DNA from: Listeria welshimeri serovar 6b str. SLCC5334
GTDB lineage: Bacteria; Bacillota; Bacilli; Lactobacillales; Listeriaceae
Assembly (NCBI RefSeq): GCF_000060285.1
Contig: NC_008555.1
Location: forward strand, 1-64,000
Length of the DNA stretch: 64,000 nt
Direction of reading: 5' to 3'
In this document: piece after piece, positions 4,868-43,028 of the stretch
How positions within the stretch are numbered: position 1 is the stretch's first letter
How the letters are laid out: the number at the start of each line of letters is the position of its first letter
Position numbers and translations under genes: made by a program
The notes under the pieces: generated by a model
What the model was told of the DNA's origin: nothing
Seen by the model: the letters and a program-made list of their open reading frames with translations, nothing else
Databases searched by the model: none

Positions 4868-5980
4868 ATGCATTTAGAAAGCATTGTTTTAAGAAATTTC
4901 CGCAATTATGAAAACTTAGAACTAGAATTTTCCCCGTCTGTGAATGTTTTTCTTGGAGAAAATGCACAAGGTAAAACTAATCTTTTGGAAGCTGTACTTA
5001 TGCTTGCTCTTGCAAAATCACATCGGACAACCAATGATAAAGATTTTATTATGTGGGAAAAAGAAGAAGCCAAAATGGAAGGGCGAGTAGTAAAGCGCGG
5101 GCAAACAGTCCCTTTAGAGCTTGCTATCACCCAAAAAGGCAAGCGAGCTAAGGTTAACCATCTGGAACAAAAGAAACTGAGCCAATATGTTGGTAACTTA
5201 AATGTGGTTATTTTTGCACCAGAAGATTTATCGCTTGTTAAAGGTGCTCCAGGAATTAGACGCCGATTTTTGAATATGGAAATTGGACAAATGCAGCCGA
5301 TTTATTTGCATAATTTAAGTGAATATCAGCGGATTTTACAACAACGGAACCAATACTTGAAGATGCTACAAATGAAACGTAAAGTAGATCCGATGTTGCT
5401 CGATATTTTGACAGAGCAATTCGCAGATGTCGCTATTAATTTGACGAAAAGGCGCGCTGATTTTATTCAAAAATTAGAAGCATATGCAGCGCCAATTCAT
5501 CACCAAATTTCTCGAGGATTAGAAACACTTAAAATCGAGTATAAAGCTTCCGTTACACTGAATGGGGACGATCCCGACACGTGGAAAGCGGATTTACTTC
5601 AAAAAATGGAATCAATCAAACAAAGAGAAATCGACCGTGGTGTCACACTTGTTGGGCCACATCGGGATGATTCTCTGTTTTATATTAATGGGCAAAATGT
5701 GCAAGATTTTGGTTCACAAGGTCAACAGCGGACAACGGCACTTTCTGTAAAATTAGCAGAAATTGACCTAATCCATGAAGAAACTGGAGAATATCCAGTT
5801 CTACTTCTTGATGATGTACTTAGTGAACTAGATGATTACCGTCAATCGCATTTGCTTGGAGCTATTGAAGGAAAAGTACAAACCTTTGTAACGACAACAA
5901 GCACGAGCGGGATTGATCATGACACGCTCAAACAAGCAACGACATTTTATGTAGAAAAAGGTACAGTAAAAAAATCCTAA
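4868..5980 (+). CDS. recF: DNA replication/repair protein RecF
   Basis: RecF is an SMC-like ATPase that helps load RecA at gaps and stalled forks. At 370 residues it has the usual length. The Walker A is [13 protein letters not shown] (residues about 33-45), the ABC-type signature is [18 protein letters not shown], and the Walker B is [11 protein letters not shown]. It is co-transcribed with yaaA and followed by gyrB after a 48-nt gap, as in other origin regions. Confidence 0.97.
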
Positions 5981-6025
5981 TCTAGGTTAATATAATTTGA
6001 TGAAAAAGAAAGTGCGGTGGAATAA

Positions 6026-7969
<1,944 letters not shown>

Positions 7970-8063
7970 TAAATATTTCCCGGGTAATAATTGGGTCATT
8001 AATTGTTTTTAAAAGGTTTGAACTAGATTCAGCCTTACTTTTGAAAGGGAGGTTTCTCTAACA

Positions 8064-10592
8064 ATGGCAGAAACACCAAATCAACGAATAACAGAGATAA
8101 ACTTAAATAAAGAAATGCGGACTTCATTTTTAGACTATGCGATGAGTGTAATTGTTGCCCGTGCTCTACCAGATGTTCGTGACGGATTAAAACCAGTTCA
8201 TCGTCGTATTTTATATGCAATGAATGACCTCGGTATGACTTCTGATAAAGCGTATAAGAAATCAGCACGTATTGTTGGGGAAGTTATTGGTAAATACCAC
8301 CCTCACGGCGATACAGCGGTTTATTTTACAATGGTTCGGATGGCGCAAGATTTTAGTTACCGTAACATGCTAGTAGATGGACATGGTAACTTTGGTTCAG
8401 TGGATGGGGATATGGCGGCTGCGATGCGTTATACAGAAGCACGTATGTCAAAAATTTCAATGGAACTACTTCGCGATATTAACAAAGATACAATTGATTA
8501 TGCTGATAACTATGATGGTTCTGAGCGTGAGCCAGTTATTTTACCAGCGCGGTTCCCTAACTTGCTTGTCAATGGTTCATCAGGGATTGCAGTTGGTATG
8601 GCTACGAATATACCAACTCATCATCTTGGTGAAGTAATTGATGGTGTATTGGCGCTTAGTCATGATCCAGAGATTAGTATTCGTGATTTAATGGAGTACA
8701 TTCCAGGACCCGACTTCCCTACTGCTGGTATGATTATGGGACGTAGCGGAATTCGACGCGCTTATGAAAGTGGTCGTGGTTCAATTACTGTTCGTGGACG
8801 TGTGGATATTGAAGAAAAGAAAAATGGTAAAGAAACAATCGTTATTACCGAAATTCCTTATCAAGTAAATAAAGCACGCCTAGTAGAACGAATTGCCGAA
8901 CTAGCACGTGAGAAAAAAATTGACGGAATTACTTCCCTAAATGATGAGTCTGACCGTTCAGGAATGCGCATTGTTATTGAAGTTCGTCGTGATATTAGTG
9001 CAAGTGTAATTGTGAATAATCTATTCAAAATGACAGCACTTCAAACCACTTTTGGAATAAATATGCTCGCATTAGTCGACAATCATCCAAAAGTACTTAA
9101 TTTAAAAGAAATTCTTTATTATTATTTAGAACATCAAAAAGTAGTTATTCGTCGCCGTACAGAATTTGAGCTTCGTAAAGCAGAAGCACGTGCTCATATT
9201 TTAGAAGGTTTACGAATTGCGCTAGATAACATTGACGCGATTATTAAATTAATTCGTGGATCAAAAACTTCTGATGTAGCCAAAGAAGGCTTAATGACTC
9301 AATTCAACCTTTCTGATAAACAAGCGCAAGCTATTTTAGACATGCGTTTGCAACGTTTAACAGGTTTAGAACGCGAAAAAATTGAAGAAGAATACCAAAA
9401 CTTAGTGGCATTAATTAATGATTTAAAAGCTATTTTAGCAGATGATGAACGTATTCTTGAAATTATTCGTGAAGAATTAGAAGAAATCAAAGTTAAATAT
9501 GCGGATAAACGTCGTACAGAAATCTTGGCTGGTGATTTAGTAAGCCTTGAAGATGAAGACCTAATTCCAGAAGAAGAAGTAGCGATTACGTTAACTAAAC
9601 GTGGTTACATTAAACGTTTACCATTATCAACTTATCGTAGTCAACGTCGTGGTGGTCGTGGTATTCAAGGAATGTCTACTCATGAAGATGACTTCGTAGA
9701 ACACCTAGTTGCAACTAGCACACATGATACGTTACTATTCTTCACTAACACTGGTAAAGTTTACCGTTCTAAAGGATATGAAGTACCTGAATACGGTCGT
9801 ACAGCGAAAGGTATTCCAATCATCAACTTACTTGGAATCGAAAGCCAAGAACAAGTGAATGCTGTGATAAACCTATCCGAATTCACAGATGATAGCTACC
9901 TATTCTTCACAACGAAACATGGTGTCGTGAAACGTACAACCCTTTCTCAATTTGCAAAAATTCGTCAAAGTGGTCTTCGTGCTGTAGAACTCCGTGAAAA
10001 CGATGAACTAATTTCTGTTCAAATGACAGATGGAAGCAAAAACATGATTATCGCAACGAAACATGGACAATCTATCTATTTCCCAGAAGCTAATATTCGT
10101 GTAATGGGTCGTACAGCTGCCGGAGTTCGTGGTATTAGACTTCGTGAAGGCGATGAAGTTATCGGTATGGAAGTACTAGAAGATAACGAAAAAGTACTCA
10201 TTGTAACTGAAAAAGGTTACGGGAAACAAACACCAGCTGCCCAGTATCCGCTTCGTAATCGTGGTGGTATGGGAGTCAAAACCGTTACAATTACCGAGAA
10301 AAATGGTAACTTAGTAGCAATGAAAACTGTTACTGGCGAAGAAGACTTAATGTTAATGACTGTGAGTGGTGTCTTGATTCGTTTTGAAATTGATACAGTA
10401 TCACAAACAGGCCGTAGCGCAATGGGTGTTAAATTAATCCGTCTAGATGAAAATGAAAAAGTAGCTACTGTTGCAAAAGTTCCAAAAGAAGAAGATGAAG
10501 TGGAGCTTGAGGAAGAAATTGACGAAACTTTAATCACGCAAGTTCCTGATGAAAGTTTTGAAGATGCTCCTGGAAGCGATATCGAAGAATAA
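8064..10592 (+). CDS. gyrA: DNA gyrase subunit A
   Basis: GyrA is the breakage-reunion subunit of gyrase. It has 842 residues, the catalytic tyrosine Y123 in [11 protein letters not shown], and the GyrA box QRRGGRG at 527-533, which starts the DNA-wrapping beta-pinwheel. The C-terminus is acidic, as in other Firmicutes. The quinolone-resistance region reads [12 protein letters not shown], with Thr at position 84 where many species have Ser. A strong ribosome binding site (AAAGGGAGG) precedes the ATG, and the gene ends at a long terminator. Confidence 0.98.
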
Positions 10593-10596
10593 ACTA

Positions 10597-10646
10597 AAGC
10601 TGGAAAACTTTCTAATTTACGAATTAGAATGATTTTCCAGCTTTTT
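10597..10646 (+). terminator. Terminator after gyrA
   Basis: AAGCTGGAAAA (10597-10607) pairs with TTTTCCAGCTT (10633-10643). An inner stem of TTCTAATT and GAATTAGAA lies between, and a T run follows. This is a long, strong intrinsic terminator. Confidence 0.92.
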
Positions 10647-10727
10647 CTTAGTATAAAAAAGCGCTTTTTGAATATAATTTATGTATAATATCCTTAATAG
10701 GTCTAAAAAAGGGAAGAGTTGAAAAAA

Positions 10728-12242
10728 ATGCGCAAACTGATTCAATTTCTGTTTATAGCAGTAGTTTTATTATTAGTGGAATTCGTTTTAATTAATTATG
10801 CAACGTTACTTTTCTTACTAACAAGTATAATTATTCAATTATGCGGGATTATTATTGCAATTCGTTTACTCCTGTTTGATCAACGGAATACGAGCTCAAA
10901 AGTCGCCTGGATGGCAGTTATTTTCATTTTACCTGTACTTGGGACGATTAGTTACTTTGTATTTGGTAGAAATCCAGCAACTAGAAAATTCAGCACGGCT
11001 CAAGTAATGGAAAAAGCGAAATTAATTAATGCGATTCATGCAATTCCAAACAACACCAATGAAAAATTACCAAGACTTTCTAAACGAATTGCTCATTTAA
11101 CTTCTATAGAGCCAATTAAAGGAAATAAAATCGAAATACTAACAAACGGTGAGGAAACTTTTCCTGTACTCCTAGACGCGCTTAGAAAAGCGGAAAACCA
11201 CATCCATATTCAATACTATATTTTCAAAACTGATGCGATTTCCACAGAGATTCGTGATATTTTGGTGGAAAAAGCGAAATCTGGTGTGGAAGTAAGGTTT
11301 ATGTTCGATGGGCTTGGTTCAAGTAAACTGAGTAAATCATTTTTAGCGCCTCTAAAAGAAGCAGGAGTTAGTATTCATGCGTTTGATCCAATAACTTCAC
11401 CATGGATTGTAAGAACTGCCAACTTAAGAAATCATCGCAAAATTGTTGTGATTGATGGGCAAATTGGCTTTACAGGCGGGTTGAACATTGGAGAAGAATA
11501 TCGTTCTAATACACCGGATTTTCGAGTTTGGCGAGATACACATATTAAAATCACTGGACAAGCTGTAATTGAACTTCAAGAATCTTTTCTAAATGATTGG
11601 ATTTACATGGAAAATCAAGCTGGAGCTGCGGATAAATTTATTAGTGACTCTGGATTAAAGCAATATTTTTCCCCAGTTGATATGGGCGAAGAATGGGCGC
11701 AAGTAATATATGGCGGACCTTATGATAAAGAAAAATGGGTTCGGGATTCAATGCTTGATTTGATTGATTCCGCCAAAGAATCAGTTTGGATTGTATCACC
11801 CTACTTTGTTCCTGATGAGGAGTCACTTGCGGTTATTCGCCGGGTTGCAATGAGTGGCGTGGATGTACGGGTAATTATTCCAGGAAAAGGCGATCGCGGG
11901 ATTTCATTCCATGGAAGTAATGCTTATGTGAAAACAATGATTGAAGCAGGTGCGCAAATGTATGCTTATGCCGATGACTCTTTTGTTCATGCAAAGGCAA
12001 TGTTAGTGGATGGAACACGTGCAGCTATTGGAACAGCTAATTTTGACGTACGTAGTTTTAGGTTGAATCATGAATTAATGGTATTCTTATATGATGAAAG
12101 CGAGGCTATGCATCATTTAAAACGTGATTTTAAGAAAGATTTTGAAGATAGTCGACTATTTACGATGAAAGATATGGAAAACAAACCATTACTTACGCGC
12201 GTAAAAGAAGTTCTTTCTAGTTTACTATCGCCAATTTTATAA
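10728..12242 (+). CDS. cls: Cardiolipin synthase
   Basis: This is a membrane phospholipase-D superfamily enzyme that joins two phosphatidylglycerols into cardiolipin. It has about 504 residues, two N-terminal membrane helices (the PLDc_N region, ending YFVFGRNPATRK), then two HKD motifs: NHRKIVVIDGQIGFTGGLN and VHAKAMLVDGTRAAIGTAN. The ATG at 10728 is chosen because AGGGAAG (10710-10716) is about 11 nt away; a TTG at 10719 is only 2 nt from it. Listeria has more than one cls gene, so I do not number this one. Confidence 0.93.
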   Translation: MRKLIQFLFIAVVLLLVEFVLINYATLLFLLTSIIIQLCGIIIAIRLLLFDQRNTSSKVAWMAVIFILPVLGTISYFVFGRNPATRKFSTAQVMEKAKLINAIHAIPNNTNEKLPRLSKRIAHLTSIEPIKGNKIEILTNGEETFPVLLDALRKAENHIHIQYYIFKTDAISTEIRDILVEKAKSGVEVRFMFDGLGSSKLSKSFLAPLKEAGVSIHAFDPITSPWIVRTANLRNHRKIVVIDGQIGFTGGLNIGEEYRSNTPDFRVWRDTHIKITGQAVIELQESFLNDWIYMENQAGAADKFISDSGLKQYFSPVDMGEEWAQVIYGGPYDKEKWVRDSMLDLIDSAKESVWIVSPYFVPDEESLAVIRRVAMSGVDVRVIIPGKGDRGISFHGSNAYVKTMIEAGAQMYAYADDSFVHAKAMLVDGTRAAIGTANFDVRSFRLNHELMVFLYDESEAMHHLKRDFKKDFEDSRLFTMKDMENKPLLTRVKEVLSSLLSPIL

Positions 12243-37118: not shown

Positions 37119-37733
37119 ATGTATAAAAAATTAGCAGCAGTCGGGGTGACAGTATTATTAGTAGGAGCTTTATCAGCTTGTAGTTTTGGCGATGATGATA
37201 AAGATACTTCTTCAAATAATGGCAGCAAAGAAACAACAAGTAGTAAGAGTAGCAGTAACAATAGTTCCACAGATAGCTTACAAAACAAAAATTTTGATAT
37301 GAGTTATGAGGATGCAGTAAGTGCATTCAAAGACAAACATAGTGATGCAGACATCTCTGGTGTTGAATTAGAAAAAAATCTTGGGAAATATGTATATACA
37401 GTTGATGGCATTTCAAATGATAATGAATATGAAATGAAATTCAATGCTGAAACAAAAGAACAAATGAGTGATGAAACAGATAAACTTGACCAAGAAGATG
37501 CTGGTGGAGTTGAAAAAGAAAACGAAAAGCTTAACTTAGATGGAATTAAAACACCAAAAGAAGCAATGGATAAAGCTATCAGTTCTCAAGCTGGTGATGT
37601 GACAAGTTGGAATATTGAAAGAGAATTAGATACAACTTATTATGAAGTAACTGTAAAACAAGATAATAACAAATACGATATCAAACTAAATGCTAAAACT
37701 TTAGAAGTACTACAAACAGAACAAGATGATTAA
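37119..37733 (+). CDS. PepSY-domain lipoprotein
   Basis: The 204-residue protein has a lipoprotein signal with lipobox LSAC (Cys21), a Ser/Asn/Lys-rich spacer (about 25-55), then two PepSY-like repeats (about 62-115 and 142-200, each containing a K-E-A-x-D/S-A helix start). It should sit on the outer face of the membrane. PepSY repeats often inhibit or hold proteases; the partner is unknown. A strong GGGGG ribosome binding site precedes the ATG. Confidence 0.88.
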   Translation: MYKKLAAVGVTVLLVGALSACSFGDDDKDTSSNNGSKETTSSKSSSNNSSTDSLQNKNFDMSYEDAVSAFKDKHSDADISGVELEKNLGKYVYTVDGISNDNEYEMKFNAETKEQMSDETDKLDQEDAGGVEKENEKLNLDGIKTPKEAMDKAISSQAGDVTSWNIERELDTTYYEVTVKQDNNKYDIKLNAKTLEVLQTEQDD

Positions 37734-37742
37734 TTAAACGAA

Positions 37743-37782
37743 AAAGCAACCTGTGATTATTCTTTCACAGGTTGCTTTTTTT
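37743..37782 (+). terminator. Terminator after the PepSY lipoprotein gene
   Basis: AAGCAACCTGTGA and TCACAGGTTGCTT form a perfect 13-bp stem, followed by seven Ts. Confidence 0.93.
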
Positions 37783-37897
37783 ATAAATAATATTACTAAA
37801 ATAGAGCATTAATATAGGTAATTAAGACTACTTATAAGTTCTTTTTACACGTTTGAAAATTCTGAACTGTATCCAAAAAAACGTCAATTTTACCCTT

Positions 37898-37970
37898 TTT
37901 TAGTCGTTCATGACAAGAAACGGACATTTCATTACATTTTTGGTTATTACAGCTAAATTCGTTGTAAAAT
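37898..37970 (+). promoter_or_regulatory. agr promoter region
   Basis: TAAAAT at 37965-37970 is a likely -10 without a good -35, which fits a promoter needing the activator AgrA. TTTTAGTCGTT at 37898-37908 lies upstream and reappears inverted before esxA (46622-46632). I cannot assign the AgrA repeats firmly. Confidence 0.5.
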
Positions 37971-37989
37971 ATTAGTGGAGGTGAATTAG

Positions 37990-38604
37990 TTGAGTAATTT
38001 TACCGTAAAAGTACCTTTATCAGAAAGAATGGCAGATGTTTTGATTTCGAAGGATCGCTGGAAAGATGACGAAGAAGGTTATTTGAAAGTAAAATATGGG
38101 CTGGAAATAATTTTAATTAATGTCATGAAGTTTGCTATCGTATACGGTATTTCCTTAGCAACAGGGTTATTACTGCAAACAGTGACAGTGCATATGTCAT
38201 ATTTATGGCTTAGAAGGTATTCATTTGGATTACATGCAACCAAAACATTGAATTGTACATTAATCAGCTTAGCAATGTTTGTACTTGCGCCATTTGTTTT
38301 CCAAAATATTCCCTCTAATAATTGGATTGTTTTAGGCACATTCGCATTTATACTACTCAACATGTTTTTATTCGCTCCGGCAGACACAGAGAGTTTGCCT
38401 TTAATCGGTGAAAAACACCGGAAAACACTAAAAAGAAAAGCGATGATAGGAACGTTAATTTTAACGGGAATTGCGTTACTAATACCATTCGCAGAGATGA
38501 AAACATTAATCATGGTAGGATCTTTGTTTCAGGTGATAAGTATCAATCCACTTAGTTACAAACTATTAAAAAGGAGGTATAGGAATTATGAAAAATATGA
38601 ATAA
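37990..38604 (+). CDS. agrB: AgrB, autoinducer peptide processing protease
   Basis: AgrB is a membrane cysteine endopeptidase that cleaves and cyclises AgrD. It has 204 residues with about five membrane helices. The catalytic pair is His in RRYSFGLHATKTLNC and the Cys of that same stretch. The start is TTG after TGGAGGTGAA. It overlaps agrD by 17 nt. Confidence 0.95.
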   Translation: MSNFTVKVPLSERMADVLISKDRWKDDEEGYLKVKYGLEIILINVMKFAIVYGISLATGLLLQTVTVHMSYLWLRRYSFGLHATKTLNCTLISLAMFVLAPFVFQNIPSNNWIVLGTFAFILLNMFLFAPADTESLPLIGEKHRKTLKRKAMIGTLILTGIALLIPFAEMKTLIMVGSLFQVISINPLSYKLLKRRYRNYEKYE

Positions 38605-38749
38605 ATCAGTTGGTAAATTCCTTTCTAGAAAACTAGAAGAAAAATCCATGAAAGTTGCGGATTCTTCTATGAGTAAAGCTTGCTTCATGTTTGTATACGA
38701 ACCAAAAAGTCCATTTGTAAAAATGCAAGAAAAAAATGAAAATAAATAA
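38588..38749 (+). CDS. agrD: AgrD, autoinducing peptide precursor
   Basis: This 53-residue precursor has an amphipathic N-terminus (MNKSVGKFLSRKLEEKS), the signal core CFMFV with Cys32 as the thiolactone residue, and an acidic C-terminal tail (YEPKSPFVKMQEKNENK). AgrB would cut after Val36 and close the Cys ring. AAGGAGG at the end of agrB serves as its ribosome binding site. The core equals the known L. monocytogenes signal. Confidence 0.95.
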   Translation: MKNMNKSVGKFLSRKLEEKSMKVADSSMSKACFMFVYEPKSPFVKMQEKNENK

Positions 38750-38844
38750 ATTAAAATCTGTATAACATCAAAATTCATGCTAAAATAAAAAGAAGGCAAA
38801 CTTACATATTTAAACATAGATATTTTAGACAGTGGAGGATTAAT

Positions 38845-40141
38845 ATGTTTAGTATTTTGATGGCATTTATACAGATAACGGGTATTTTTATAGCGATCCA
38901 GATTTTAACAAACAAAGTTTTTTCAATTAAAGAGGGATTGGTTACTATAGCAATTGCTATAGTAACCAATCCCTTTATTTACATTAGTTCAATACTGGTC
39001 GATGATTTTTGTGTTGGCAATTTTTGTAGGTGCTTTGTATTGGAAGAACAAGAATGTAATAGTTTCAGGTTCTATTACACTTGTGGTTATTATTTTGCTT
39101 ACTATTAGTGATTCTATAGTAGGTTTTATTTTAGTACCGGGTTTGAATTTTAAATACGATGAAATATTTGATGAATTACTACCTACACTTATTTATTGTG
39201 CGGGTATGTTGACGAATTTATTAGTGCTCTCATTTATTCTAAGAAAATTGATCGAAAAAGTAAATATAGCTAGATTTGTTGAACATAGAAAATATGCTTA
39301 TATTATTTTTTCTATTGTTGCTCTGACGGTTTTAGCTTTTTATATGAATATTTATGCTGGATCCATTGCTGGTTTTGATGGTTCAGTTTTGAAAATCAAC
39401 ACACTTATTTTTACAGGTTATACTATTTTATTAATAGTAATCGTGACGGTTGTTATTAATACTGCAACCAATGAACTTAAAGTACAGAATCAGAAGGAAC
39501 AACTAGAACAGTTACAGGATTATGTTACTACATTAGAGTCCCTGCATAGAGAAATGAGAGTTTTTCGTCATGATTATGTGAATATCTTGTCAACACTTGT
39601 GGGATATATCGATAATAATGACATGCCGGGTTTGAAGTATTACTTTGAAAATAATATTGTACCTATAAATAAAACAATTGAATCGAATAACTACAAGATT
39701 TCACTGCTTCAAAATATTCATGTGATTGAACTAAAAGGTTTGTTGGCTGTTAAGTTAATACGAGCTCAAGAGTTGAAGATTGATGCGATATTGGAAGTTG
39801 TCGAACCTATTGATAAGATTTCCATGGATAGCATTGATTTGTGTAAAGTTGTTGGGATTTTGCTAGATAATGCTGTTGAAGCGGCCTTAACATGTGAAAA
39901 TCCAGTTATTCGAATCGCGTTCGTGAAAAAAGGCGATAGCATTATTATTGTGTTTGCGAATAGTTTACCAGTAAATATGCCGCCCATTTATAAAATATTT
40001 GAAGAAGGTTTCTCTACAAAAGGAGAAGGTCGTGGTTTAGGTCTTGCTAGTTTACGGGAGATTATGAAGAAATATTCGCATGTTGCCTTAGATACAAAAG
40101 TGACTAATAGAGAAGTTATTCAAGAACTAGAAATTATGTAG
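38845..40141 (+). pseudogene. agrC: agrC, sensor histidine kinase, broken by a +1 frameshift
   Basis: The frame from ATG 38845 (RBS GTGGAGG) runs 42 good codons to AAT 38968-38970, then leaves frame and ends at 39108. The rest of AgrC continues in the next frame from about 38972 to the stop at 40141: membrane helices, then FRHDYVNIL with the phospho-acceptor His, and the GHKL ATPase (DNAVEAAL, GRGLGLASLREI). The total of 1,297 nt is one base too many; dropping a C from CCC (38971-38973) gives a 431-residue protein. The slip lies at the edge of a perfect 42-nt palindrome (38933-38974). Reinitiation at ATG 39002 would give 379 residues lacking the first helices. Confidence 0.85.
38933..38974. 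repeat. Perfect 42-nt palindrome inside agrC
   Basis: Each arm is 21 nt; the left arm contains GGGATTGGTTACTATAGCAA and the right arm is its exact complement, with no loop. Such a long perfect dyad in a coding region is rare, since it would extrude as a hairpin. Its right edge is where the agrC frame changes. Confidence 0.95.
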
Positions 40142-40159
40142 AAGAATGGGGATGAATTT

Positions 40160-40888
40160 ATGCTACCGGTTTTTATTTGTGAAGATAACAAAATGCAGCG
40201 AGAAAGGTTAACAAAATATATTGAAGACTATATAATGGTCGAACATTTTGATATGAAGTTAGAGCTTTCGACGGGAGATCCATTTGAGTTAGTGTCACGA
40301 ATGCCTAGACATCAAGGTATGGGATTATATTTTTTAGATATTGATTTGGGGCAGCCGGACATGAATGGTTTTGAATTAGCTCAAGAAATTCGAAAATTTG
40401 ATCCACGTGGGTTTATTATTTTCATTACAACACATGCAGAACTAAGTTATATGACTTTTACGTACAAGGTGGAAGCGCTTGATTACATTATCAAGGACGA
40501 TATTGATATGTTGCATGAACGAGTTTTAGCTTGTATGAAGCAAGCAGAGGAACGAATTTCAAATGATCAAGATATGCAGAAATACTTTACGTTTAAAGTT
40601 TCAGATAAGAAGATTATTCATGAACTTCTGGATGATATTTTGTTTTTTGAGACAGCGCCAACTATCCATAAAGTAATTTTACATGGCAAAAATCGACAAG
40701 TAGAATTTTATGGTAAGCTAAAAAGTATTGAAAAAATGTTGGATGAATCGTTTTATAGATGTCACCGCTCATATATTGTAAATAAGAAAAATATTCATGA
40801 GTTAGATACGGCAAAAGGTGTTGTAAAAATGTCTAATGGTGAGAATTGTTATGCTTCGTCGAAATTAATTAAAAGTTTAAGTTTATAA
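40160..40888 (+). CDS. agrA: AgrA, LytTR response regulator
   Basis: AgrA is the DNA-binding output of agr. It has 242 residues: a receiver domain (1-125, acidic pocket CEDN, likely phospho-acceptor Asp60 in FLDIDLG) and a LytTR DNA-binding domain (about 140-240, with FYRCHRSYIVN). The gene looks intact, unlike agrC, so it may act unphosphorylated or be silent. Confidence 0.96.
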   Translation: MLPVFICEDNKMQRERLTKYIEDYIMVEHFDMKLELSTGDPFELVSRMPRHQGMGLYFLDIDLGQPDMNGFELAQEIRKFDPRGFIIFITTHAELSYMTFTYKVEALDYIIKDDIDMLHERVLACMKQAEERISNDQDMQKYFTFKVSDKKIIHELLDDILFFETAPTIHKVILHGKNRQVEFYGKLKSIEKMLDESFYRCHRSYIVNKKNIHELDTAKGVVKMSNGENCYASSKLIKSLSL

Positions 40889-40914
40889 AAGTGGCCTTTT
40901 GGGTCGCTTTTTTT
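40889..40914 (+). terminator. Terminator of the agr operon
   Basis: AAGTGGCC and GGTCGCTT pair with two G-T pairs, followed by seven Ts. Confidence 0.78.
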
Positions 40915-41054
40915 GTACAAAAGTTAGTTTGGATTTGAAGAAACGCGGAATTATAGGTAAAATAATAGTGGTGAATTGTTAGTTAAGTTTATGTTATGAT
41001 ATAGATACTCAAATTCAGACAAAAGGTATGTAAAAAAATGGGGAGCTGGATGAA

Positions 41055-43028
41055 ATGTCAGGCTATTTTCAAAAACGAATGCTTAAATATCCATTATACG
41101 GTCTGATTGCAGCGACAATTATATTGAGCGTAATCACGTTCTTTTTTTCGTGGTGGTTATCGGCGCTAGTTGTTGTTGGTGGGATTATTCTTACTGTAGC
41201 GATGTTTTACTTTGAACATCGTCTAAATGAGGATGTTCAATTATATGTTTCTAATTTAACATATCGGATTAAGCGTAGTGAGGAAGAAGCGCTTGTTGAA
41301 ATGCCGATGGGAATATTGCTGTATGATGAACATTATAGAATCGAATGGGTTAATCCGTTCATGTCTAAATACTTTGATAAAACAGAACTAATTGGTGAAT
41401 CTTTAGAAGAGGTAGGTCCTGAATTTCTGGATGTAATTACTGGAAATGATGAAAAAGGAATTATGTCGATTGCTTGGCGTGAACATCGTTTTGATACGAT
41501 TGTGAAGCGTAAGGAGCGCATTTTGTATCTATACGACCGGACAGAGTATTATGAACTAAATAAGAAATATCAAGCGAACAAATCAGTTTTTGCAGTTATT
41601 TTCTTAGATAATTACGATGAATGGGCGCAAGGTATGGATGATAGACGCCGTAGTGCACTAAATAATTTGGTGACATCAATGCTTACTAACTGGGCACGTG
41701 AACATAGAATTTATTTGAAACGGATTTCGACAGATCGTTTTATGGCTTTTTTAACAGAAGAGATGTTGAAAAGGTTGGAAGAAGAGAAGTTTCAAATTTT
41801 GGATCGAATTCGCGAGCGGACTTCAAAGCAAAATATTCCGCTGACGCTTAGTATCGGAATTGGTTATAAAGAAGAGGACTTGATTGCGCTTGCTGATTTG
41901 GCTCAGTCTAGTTTGGACCTTGCTTTAGGGCGTGGTGGAGATCAGGTCGTAATTAAGCAACCTGAAGGAAAAGTAAGATTTTATGGTGGAAAAACGAATC
42001 CAATGGAAAAAAGGACTCGTGTGCGTGCGCGTGTTATTTCGCAAGCTTTGCAAGAGCTAATCACACAGAGTGATCAAGTTTTTGTTATGGGGCATCGCTA
42101 TCCGGATATGGACGTAATTGGTTCTAGTCTTGGAGTTATGCGAATTGCAGAGATGAACGATCGAAATGCTTATGTGGTCGTTGAACCTGGCAAAATGAGT
42201 CCAGATGTGAAACGATTAATGAATGAAATTGAAGAATACCCTAATGTGATTAAAAATATTGTGACTCCACAAGTTGCACTCGAAAATATCACAGAGAAGA
42301 GTTTGCTTGTTGTTGTTGATACACACAAACCTTCAATGGTTATTAATAAGGAACTGCTCGATTCGGCTACAAATGTCGTTGTTGTCGATCATCACCGTCG
42401 TTCAGAGGAATTTGTTGGTAATCCGGTTCTAGTTTATATTGAACCGTATGCGTCCTCTACGGCCGAACTGATTACGGAGCTATTTGAGTACCAACCTGAT
42501 TTAGAACAAGTTGGGAAAATTGAAGCAACGGCACTTCTTTCCGGGATTGTCGTTGATACTAAAAACTTTACATTACGGACTGGGTCGAGAACGTTTGATG
42601 CAGCAAGTTATCTACGTTCGCTTGGGGCGGATACGATTTTAGTACAGCAATTTTTGAAAGAAGATATTACTACTTTTACACAGCGAAGTCGTTTAGTGGA
42701 GTCGCTTGAAATTTATCATGATGGTATGGCGATTGCTGCTGGACAGGAAGACGAGGAATTTGGAACGGTCATTGCAGCGCAGGCAGCAGATACGATGCTT
42801 TCTATGGAAGGTGTACAGGCGTCCTTTGTTATCACGCTTCGTCCAGATAAATTAATCGGAATTAGCGCAAGGTCGCTTGGACAAATCAATGTGCAAGTCA
42901 TTATGGAAAAACTAGGCGGTGGAGGTCATTTATCGAATGCAGCCACACAGCTTAAAGATGTTACAATTGCAGAAGCAAAAAAACAATTAATTAGCGCCAT
43001 TGATGCGTATTGGAAGGGAGAAACATAA
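41055..43028 (+). CDS. gdpP: GdpP/PdeA, cyclic-di-AMP phosphodiesterase
   Basis: This membrane enzyme breaks c-di-AMP to pApA. The 657 residues comprise two N-terminal helices (about 10-50), a PAS domain (about 80-150), a degenerate GGDEF domain (about 170-300, LGRGGDQVV) and a DHH-DHHA1 phosphodiesterase (about 340-655). Metal ligands are seen in [14 protein letters not shown] and DHH at 445-447, with [10 protein letters not shown] near the end. It is followed by rplI after 2 nt. Confidence 0.96.

What the first reader, a model, noticed from the sequence alone, without database searches (positions are those of the whole stretch)
38845..40141. agrC is split by a +1 frameshift at the edge of a perfect palindrome
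Seen directly: the agrC frame opens at 38845 and is lost just after codon 42, while the rest of the kinase continues one base over to 40141. The length is 1,297 nt; removing one C from CCC at 38971-38973 gives an unbroken 431-residue AgrC. The slip point coincides with the right edge of a 42-nt perfect palindrome (38933-38974). With one C fewer, the right arm reads CCAATCCT and no longer matches the left AGGGATTGG. So the extra base turns an imperfect palindrome into a perfect one, the signature of quasipalindrome-templated (template-switch) mutation. Such events can revert, so agrC may be a natural on/off switch for quorum sensing. agrB, agrD and agrA look intact.
Basis: partly seen in the sequence, partly recalled or inferred. 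Interest (0 to 1): 0.88.

Follow-up and report, generated by a model that had tools for sequence, protein, structure and literature searches.

The report
Receptor gene broken at conserved hairpin
In this Listeria genome the gene for a quorum-sensing receptor looks recently broken by a copying error in which DNA folded back on itself at a hairpin, and the same hairpin is kept inside this gene in the other Listeria species examined, which hints that it has a job of its own.

Summary
The frameshift and the 42-nt perfect palindrome in agrC are real. Comparison with 14 close Listeria genomes shows that the lesion is not a one-base slip. Within 38961-38969 there are four substitutions and a net one-base gain, all in the right arm and all copying the unchanged left arm: the signature of a quasipalindrome template switch. 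None of 23 intact relatives has the perfect palindrome, and a perfect palindrome keeps no record of the old arm, so the same mechanism cannot reverse it: the on/off switch is not supported. The downstream part still looks conserved (19 synonymous, 3 nonsynonymous private changes), so the loss is very recent or the rest is still made.

The larger result is the substrate. All 23 intact relatives, and a 24th species whose agrC is broken elsewhere, carry a hairpin at this place, with depressed synonymous variation, folding more stable than synonymous controls, and covarying pairs. No Rfam family matched and my paper searches found no description. I read it as a conserved coding-region RNA element of the agr mRNA; its function (attenuation, processing or pausing) is inferred. 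One strain of this species could be examined, so strain versus species status and sequencing error remain open.

The parts
37990..38604 (+). agrB (TTG start), intact
   Evidence: NF002210 359.7 bits, over its cut-off; PF04647 AgrB
38588..38749 (+). agrD, autoinducing-peptide precursor, intact
   Evidence: TIGR04223 27.9 bits, over its cut-off of 19; no Pfam match
38845..39108 (+). agrC, first piece: native start, in frame up to the changed tract, then out of frame to a stop (87 aa)
   Evidence: no family match of its own
38933..38974 (.). 42-nt perfect palindrome; as sense RNA a 21-bp hairpin (-34.7 kcal/mol, z -9.4 against shuffles)
38933..38953 (+). left arm, the unchanged template; identical in six of 14 close relatives, three differences in the other eight
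38961..38969 (+). changed tract in the right arm: four substitutions and a net one-base gain, all matching the complement of the left arm
38926..38983 (+). site of the genus-wide conserved agrC hairpin (covariance model R1, 71.3 bits; the window was not in the training set)
38966..40141 (+). agrC, second piece: rest of the sensor, histidine-box region and GHKL ATPase domain in the other frame; first ATG at 39002
   Evidence: PF14501 63.4 bits, over its cut-off
40160..40888 (+). agrA, intact response regulator
   Evidence: Response_reg and LytTR over their cut-offs

Best explanation
agrC of this Listeria (very probably L. welshimeri SLCC5334) was inactivated by one recent quasipalindrome template-switch event. 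While copying a conserved imperfect hairpin about 90-130 nt into agrC, the polymerase folded back, copied the left arm into the right arm and returned. This gave a perfect 21-bp palindrome, four substitutions and a net +1 frame change at once. The recipient is the right arm of a near-origin locus, which fits fold-back of the nascent leading strand (inferred). The substrate is a hairpin kept inside agrC in the genus. I read it as a functional structure of the agr mRNA, most likely affecting how much receptor (agrCA) is made relative to signal (agrBD) by partial termination or processing, or else pausing ribosomes. Shown: lesion, templated pattern, absence of the perfect form in relatives, conservation of the hairpin. 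Inferred: loss of function, single event, strand of the event, role of the hairpin.
For: Template switch: all differences from relatives in the arm lie within nine nt and match the left-arm complement; the left arm is unchanged. This tract has the densest cluster of window-private changes in the operon (4 in 9 nt; 78 of 5000 random placements reached 4). The arm sequence occurs nowhere else in the genome with up to 3 mismatches. Palindrome arm 21 nt against 10 for the next. Recent loss: 19 synonymous and 3 nonsynonymous private changes in the downstream piece; a neutral share of 5% of the branch already gives P=0.0095. Conserved hairpin: synonymous variation is lowest at this place (20-codon window, 0 of 400 permutations as low in 23 species). 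Folding energy is below the synonymous-codon mean in 23 of 23, with at most 10 of 300 controls as stable in 22 of 23, plus a 24th species at 0 of 300. Covariation score 0.320 against 0.205 in shuffles (0 of 500 reach it) and at most 0.151 when slid. Model R1 finds the agrC site in 24 of 25 genus genomes at E below 1e-9. Leading strand: GC skew positive in 16 of 16 windows.
Against: Only one assembly of this species could be read; no reads. The permutation value for the cluster alone is modest (78 of 5000); the template match carries the argument. L021 also has a 9-nt cluster of 4 private changes in the same operon. The hairpin's sense-strand preference is moderate: sense RNA is more stable in 19 of 23, and G-U cells outnumber A-C cells 39 to 10, but by distinct pair types only 9 to 6, P=0.30. 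Two of the five covariation measures do not exceed shuffles (pairs with two-sided change 137 of 500, further pair types 254 of 500). In the nine distant species alone the synonymous dip is weak for short windows (8 codons: 245 of 400 permutations as low; 12 codons: 161; 20 codons: 5). The T-rich tail is only moderate (4-6 T in 8), so it is not a textbook terminator. Template switching can itself maintain hairpins (abstract of PMC8794818).
Confidence: 0.75

Rival explanations
1. agrC is a reversible on/off (phase-variation) switch driven by the palindrome.
For: The lesion sits in a palindrome of a mutation-prone kind and the downstream piece shows no decay.
Against: Template switching moves imperfect palindromes towards perfect ones; the perfect form holds no copy of the former arm. 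0 of 23 intact relatives has the perfect form. No tandem repeat array was found at 38800-39200. Inversion sites and strain mixtures were not tested.
Confidence: 0.04
2. Sequencing or assembly artefact at a strong hairpin.
For: One genome only; strong hairpins can disturb sequencing (recalled). The gene is otherwise undecayed.
Against: A base-calling error would not create four substitutions plus a length change that all copy the other arm.
Confidence: 0.06
3. The gene is still translated by +1 recoding: the lesion places a rare CCC proline codon in frame just after the changed tract, and Listeria phages use +1 shifting at CCC followed by U.
For: Passages of PMC5009743: +1 shifts at CCC_UGA and CCC_UCC in Listeria phages, CCC being about 5% of proline codons there. 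Purifying selection on the downstream piece.
Against: The next codon is an ordinary sense codon, not a stop. The configuration is in none of the aligned relatives, so it is not a conserved device. Recent loss explains the selection pattern equally well. A 3' pseudoknot was not searched for.
Confidence: 0.07
4. A shortened AgrC starts at the internal ATG 39002 (379 aa) and keeps a function, for instance as a kinase that no longer senses the peptide.
For: Open frame with ATPase domain under purifying selection.
Against: It lacks the first 52 residues found in relatives, hence the first membrane segments (recalled topology); by eye no good ribosome-binding site precedes 39002. Recent loss explains the selection pattern as well.
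Confidence: 0.08
5. The hairpin conservation reflects only protein constraint, shared ancestry and neutral template-switch homogenisation, without function.
For: Template switching can keep stems paired (abstract of PMC8794818). Fourteen of 23 sequences are close relatives. The strand test by distinct pair types is not significant.
Against: Energies beat synonymous controls that hold the protein fixed, also in distant species (weakest L031, 22 of 300). GAG is used at one Glu in 23 of 23 species although GAG is 117 of 585 Glu codons in the same genes. Five sister-genus agrC loci give no match to the model. Tolerated G-U pairs are not what homogenisation would leave (inference).
Confidence: 0.25

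Closest known systems
Quasipalindrome-associated template-switch mutations (E. coli lacZ reporters; PMC7202029, passages seen)
   Same: An imperfect inverted repeat becomes perfect in one step, with templated changes and a frame change.
   Different: Here a natural event in a chromosomal quorum-sensing gene, inferred from relatives, not selected in a reporter; direction is loss, not reversion.
Template-switch events creating or maintaining RNA hairpins (PMC8794818, abstract and outline seen)
   Same: A single event turns an imperfect stem into a perfect one.
   Different: There in RNA genes; here inside a protein-coding gene, where it breaks the frame.
agr-defective variants of staphylococci (recalled)
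   Same: Loss of the receptor gene with the rest of the operon open.
   Different: Lesion type, and a conserved hairpin as its substrate.
Internal 3' ends and RNAs within coding sequences (E. coli 3'-end maps, PMC7815308, passages seen)
   Same: RNA features within an open reading frame that may end a transcript or be cut from it.
   Different: No transcript data here; identified by conservation only.

Membership tests
Quasipalindrome template-switch mutation | An imperfect inverted repeat existed before the event | tested here: met
   Imperfect hairpin in 14 of 14 close relatives (ten of them also)
Quasipalindrome template-switch mutation | Clustered changes all explained by copying the other arm | tested here: met
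   Four substitutions and a one-base gain in nine nt, all matching the left-arm complement
Quasipalindrome template-switch mutation | The changes occurred together in one event | not testable with these tools
   No sister strains or intermediates available; one genome per species
Phase-variation switch | Both states coexist or alternate among close strains | tested here: inconclusive
   0 of 23 intact relatives has the perfect form; no other strain of this species was reachable
Conserved structured RNA element | Structure conserved with compensatory changes | tested here: met
   7 of 18 pairs with two-sided changes; cells paired, cells with two-sided change and covariation score exceed all 500 shuffles. 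Weaker: pairs with two-sided change 21 of 500 and 137 of 500; further pair types 89 and 254 of 500
Conserved structured RNA element | Match to a described RNA family | tested here: not met
   No Rfam family reaches its gathering score at 37700-41100
Intrinsic terminator or attenuator | GC-rich stem followed by a U-tract that ends transcripts | tested here: inconclusive
   4-6 T in the 8 nt after the stem base in 23 species; flagged as terminator-like in the window on both strands; no 3'-end data
agrBDCA quorum-sensing operon | AgrB, AgrD, AgrC and AgrA encoded in this order | tested here: met
   the second AgrC piece and AgrA match the AgrC and AgrA models at 272.5 and 243.2 bits, below those models' cut-offs of 500 and 400

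The most novel reading that the evidence does not exclude
A hairpin inside the agrC coding sequence is a genus-wide regulatory RNA element of the Listeria agr mRNA that sets receptor against signal, and keeping it exposes the receptor gene to template-switch inactivation, so that quorum-sensing loss is a predictable by-product of its own control element.
Probability: 0.35. Interest if true: 0.75.

Novelty: new member of a known kind. Interest (0 to 1): 0.52.

Why it matters
It is a clean natural example of template-switch mutation breaking a bacterial gene, readable from relatives. More generally it points to a conserved RNA structure inside a quorum-sensing receptor gene of Listeria, undescribed as far as my searches show and testable with existing 3'-end and RNA-structure methods, and to a trade-off in which a structure kept for regulation is also a mutation hotspot.

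Tried and rejected
Rejected: single-base slip at a C run (relatives differ at several positions). Rejected: palindrome imported from elsewhere in the genome (arm occurs only here). Rejected: known Rfam element (the two hits overlapping the palindrome are microRNA families at 23 bits against cut-offs of 67-68). Rejected: tandem-repeat slippage (no array at 38800-39200). Led nowhere: literature on an agrC hairpin or on the agrC lesion of L. welshimeri. The listings (0 papers), and passages of PMC4916163 (it does say that the predicted signal peptide of L. welshimeri is identical to that of L. monocytogenes), PMC5623016, PMC11183264, PMC9228178, PMC7221448, PMC8079631 (no mention of agr), PMC11970672, PMC3019230, PMC3556495 and PMC2955705 gave none. 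The L. welshimeri genome paper is not held, and the library holds open-licence papers only. Counting G-U against A-C as a strand test was not significant by distinct pair types.

Limits: the genomes are one per species, so strain variation could not be tested. The genome-wide model search scored 150 of 973-1825 candidates per genome, so absences in other genera are soft. Relatedness inflates the 23-species counts; identical rows leave 16 distinct hairpins. The sliding control used 13 of the 23 relatives. One search folded ten of the 14 close relatives.

Full report
What is there. The window begins near a replication origin: its first long gene looks like dnaA (recalled from its sequence; ORF at 318-1673), and GC skew is positive in all 16 windows of 4 kb. 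The genome is one contig of 2,814,130 bases. That length is, from memory, that of Listeria welshimeri serovar 6b SLCC5334; a paper passage gives 2.81 Mb for this strain (PMC3019230). No call names the organism. At 37990-40888 lies agrBDCA.

The lesion. agrC opens at 38845, leaves its frame in the right arm of a palindrome and stops at 39108. The remainder is open in the next frame to 40141. The palindrome 38933-38974 is perfect, with 21-nt arms and no spacer. In the 64-kb window the next longest zero-gap palindrome has 10-nt arms, and 20 shuffles gave at most 10. The 21-nt arm occurs only here in the genome with up to 3 mismatches.

Comparison. All 25 genomes of the genus that were searched contain an agrC match. 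In 23 the gene is a single open frame of 429-438 codons as extracted; the exceptions are this window and G009, whose agrC is broken in a different place, near the histidine box. Aligned with the 14 closest relatives, the left arm of the window is identical to that of six and differs from the other eight at three positions. The right arm differs from relatives within 38961-38969 by four substitutions and a net gain of one base. Four of these five columns are private to the window among the 15 sequences. At the fifth, four relatives (one clade) share the window's base and the others do not, so I take it as derived on the tree. Every change matches the complement of the left arm. Four private columns in nine nt is the densest cluster in the operon on this branch; random placement of the 52 private positions reached it in 78 of 5000 trials, and one relative, L021, also shows a cluster of four. 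Clustering alone is therefore modest evidence; the template match, and the perfection of the resulting palindrome, carry the case. The template match by chance is about (1/3)^4 x 1/4 (my arithmetic, made after seeing the pattern).

Mechanism. Template-switch mutagenesis at quasipalindromes makes an imperfect repeat perfect or more perfect (passages of PMC7202029; abstract of PMC8794818). Here the right arm is the recipient, on the strand that GC skew marks as leading at an origin-proximal locus. This is what fold-back of a nascent leading strand would give (inferred).

Age and consequence. In the downstream piece the window has 19 synonymous and 3 nonsynonymous private changes, a ratio of 0.04 against 0.105 pooled over the other 14. 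If 5% of the branch had been neutral, 3 or fewer nonsynonymous changes would have P=0.0095; at 10%, P=0.00094; with no neutral share, P=0.076. So the loss is very recent, perhaps confined to this strain, or the rest of the protein is still made. The lesion puts a CCC codon in frame just after the changed tract. Listeria phages use CCC followed by U for +1 shifting (passages of PMC5009743), but the next codon here is an ordinary sense codon, and I did not test recoding further.

The substrate is conserved. Folding the same place in ten close relatives gave an imperfect hairpin in each (-21.9 to -24.7 kcal/mol; the window -34.7). It is found in all 23 intact species, including nine whose downstream AgrC piece is only 49-59% identical to the window's. 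Across 23 species synonymous variation is lowest here: observed over expected 0.51 in a 20-codon window, 0 of 400 column permutations as low; for 8 codons 27 of 400. In the nine distant species alone it is 5 of 400 for 20 codons but 161 of 400 for 12 and 245 of 400 for 8 codons. Against synonymous-codon controls the energy is below the mean in 23 of 23 species, and at most 10 of 300 controls are as stable in 22 of 23 (L031: 22 of 300). G009 gives 0 of 300. Scanned along the whole gene in 13 of the 23, the hairpin ranks first of 68-71 windows in 7 and within the first six in all 13. The Glu codon in the left arm is GAG in 23 of 23 species, although GAG is 117 of 585 Glu codons in these genes.

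Structure evidence. On the 23-sequence alignment (16 distinct rows) 88.9% of cells pair. Seven of 18 pairs show two-sided changes. The covariation score is 0.320, against 0.205 for shuffles (0 of 500 reach it) and at most 0.151 when the partner is slid. The number of pairs with two-sided changes and the number of further pair types are not remarkable against shuffles (137 and 254 of 500; 21 and 89 of 500 on the 21-sequence alignment). Sense RNA is more stable than antisense in 19 of 23. G-U cells exceed A-C cells 39 to 10, but by distinct pair types only 9 to 6, P=0.30. A covariance model built from the 23 finds the site in 24 of 25 genus genomes at E below 1e-9, the window (not in the training set) included. 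In the window's genome the only other match up to E 1 is the same place on the other strand. G009 is missed at that threshold but matches weakly at the same place in a targeted search (14.5 bits, E 0.5). In 11 genomes of the two sister genera nothing falls below E 0.01 (best 0.0109), and five sister-genus agrC loci give no match up to E 10. Rfam has no family at its cut-off here.

What it may do. The stem is followed by a moderately T-rich tail (4-6 T in 8) and lies early in agrC, downstream of agrBD. Partial termination or processing that lowers agrCA relative to agrBD is my first guess (about 0.45), ribosome pausing or another translational role second (about 0.25), no function third (about 0.25). 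None is shown. In the window the hairpin is 10-13 kcal/mol stronger than in ten close relatives, so polarity on agrA is possible too.

Verdict. The conserved hairpin is the more interesting result and is new as far as the searches listed in Tried and rejected show.

Noticed in passing
L060 (G029:C22:52000-66000), about 5855-9424 and 10420-11316 on the - strand: In a sister genus of the same family, five AgrC-like membrane proteins that end soon after a histidine-box region, apparently before any ATPase domain, sit beside fuller agr genes: possibly an array of kinase-less peptide receptors (no family scan was run). Similar runs of partial matches appear in G027, G028, G031, G032 and G033.
   Followed up: partly
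L032/L033 (G009:C1:1295212-1296343): Another Listeria species has agrC broken by an independent frame change near the histidine box, while its hairpin is intact.
   Followed up: partly
window 38963-38965: The templated change also created a stop codon in the downstream frame, so that frame is open only from 38966.
   Followed up: no
relatives' agrC, around codons 355-385: A second stretch of unusually stable folding against synonymous controls recurs in several of the 13 relatives scanned.
   Followed up: no
window 37741-37780: Strong terminator-like hairpin, flagged on the - strand, between the preceding gene and agrB.
   Followed up: no
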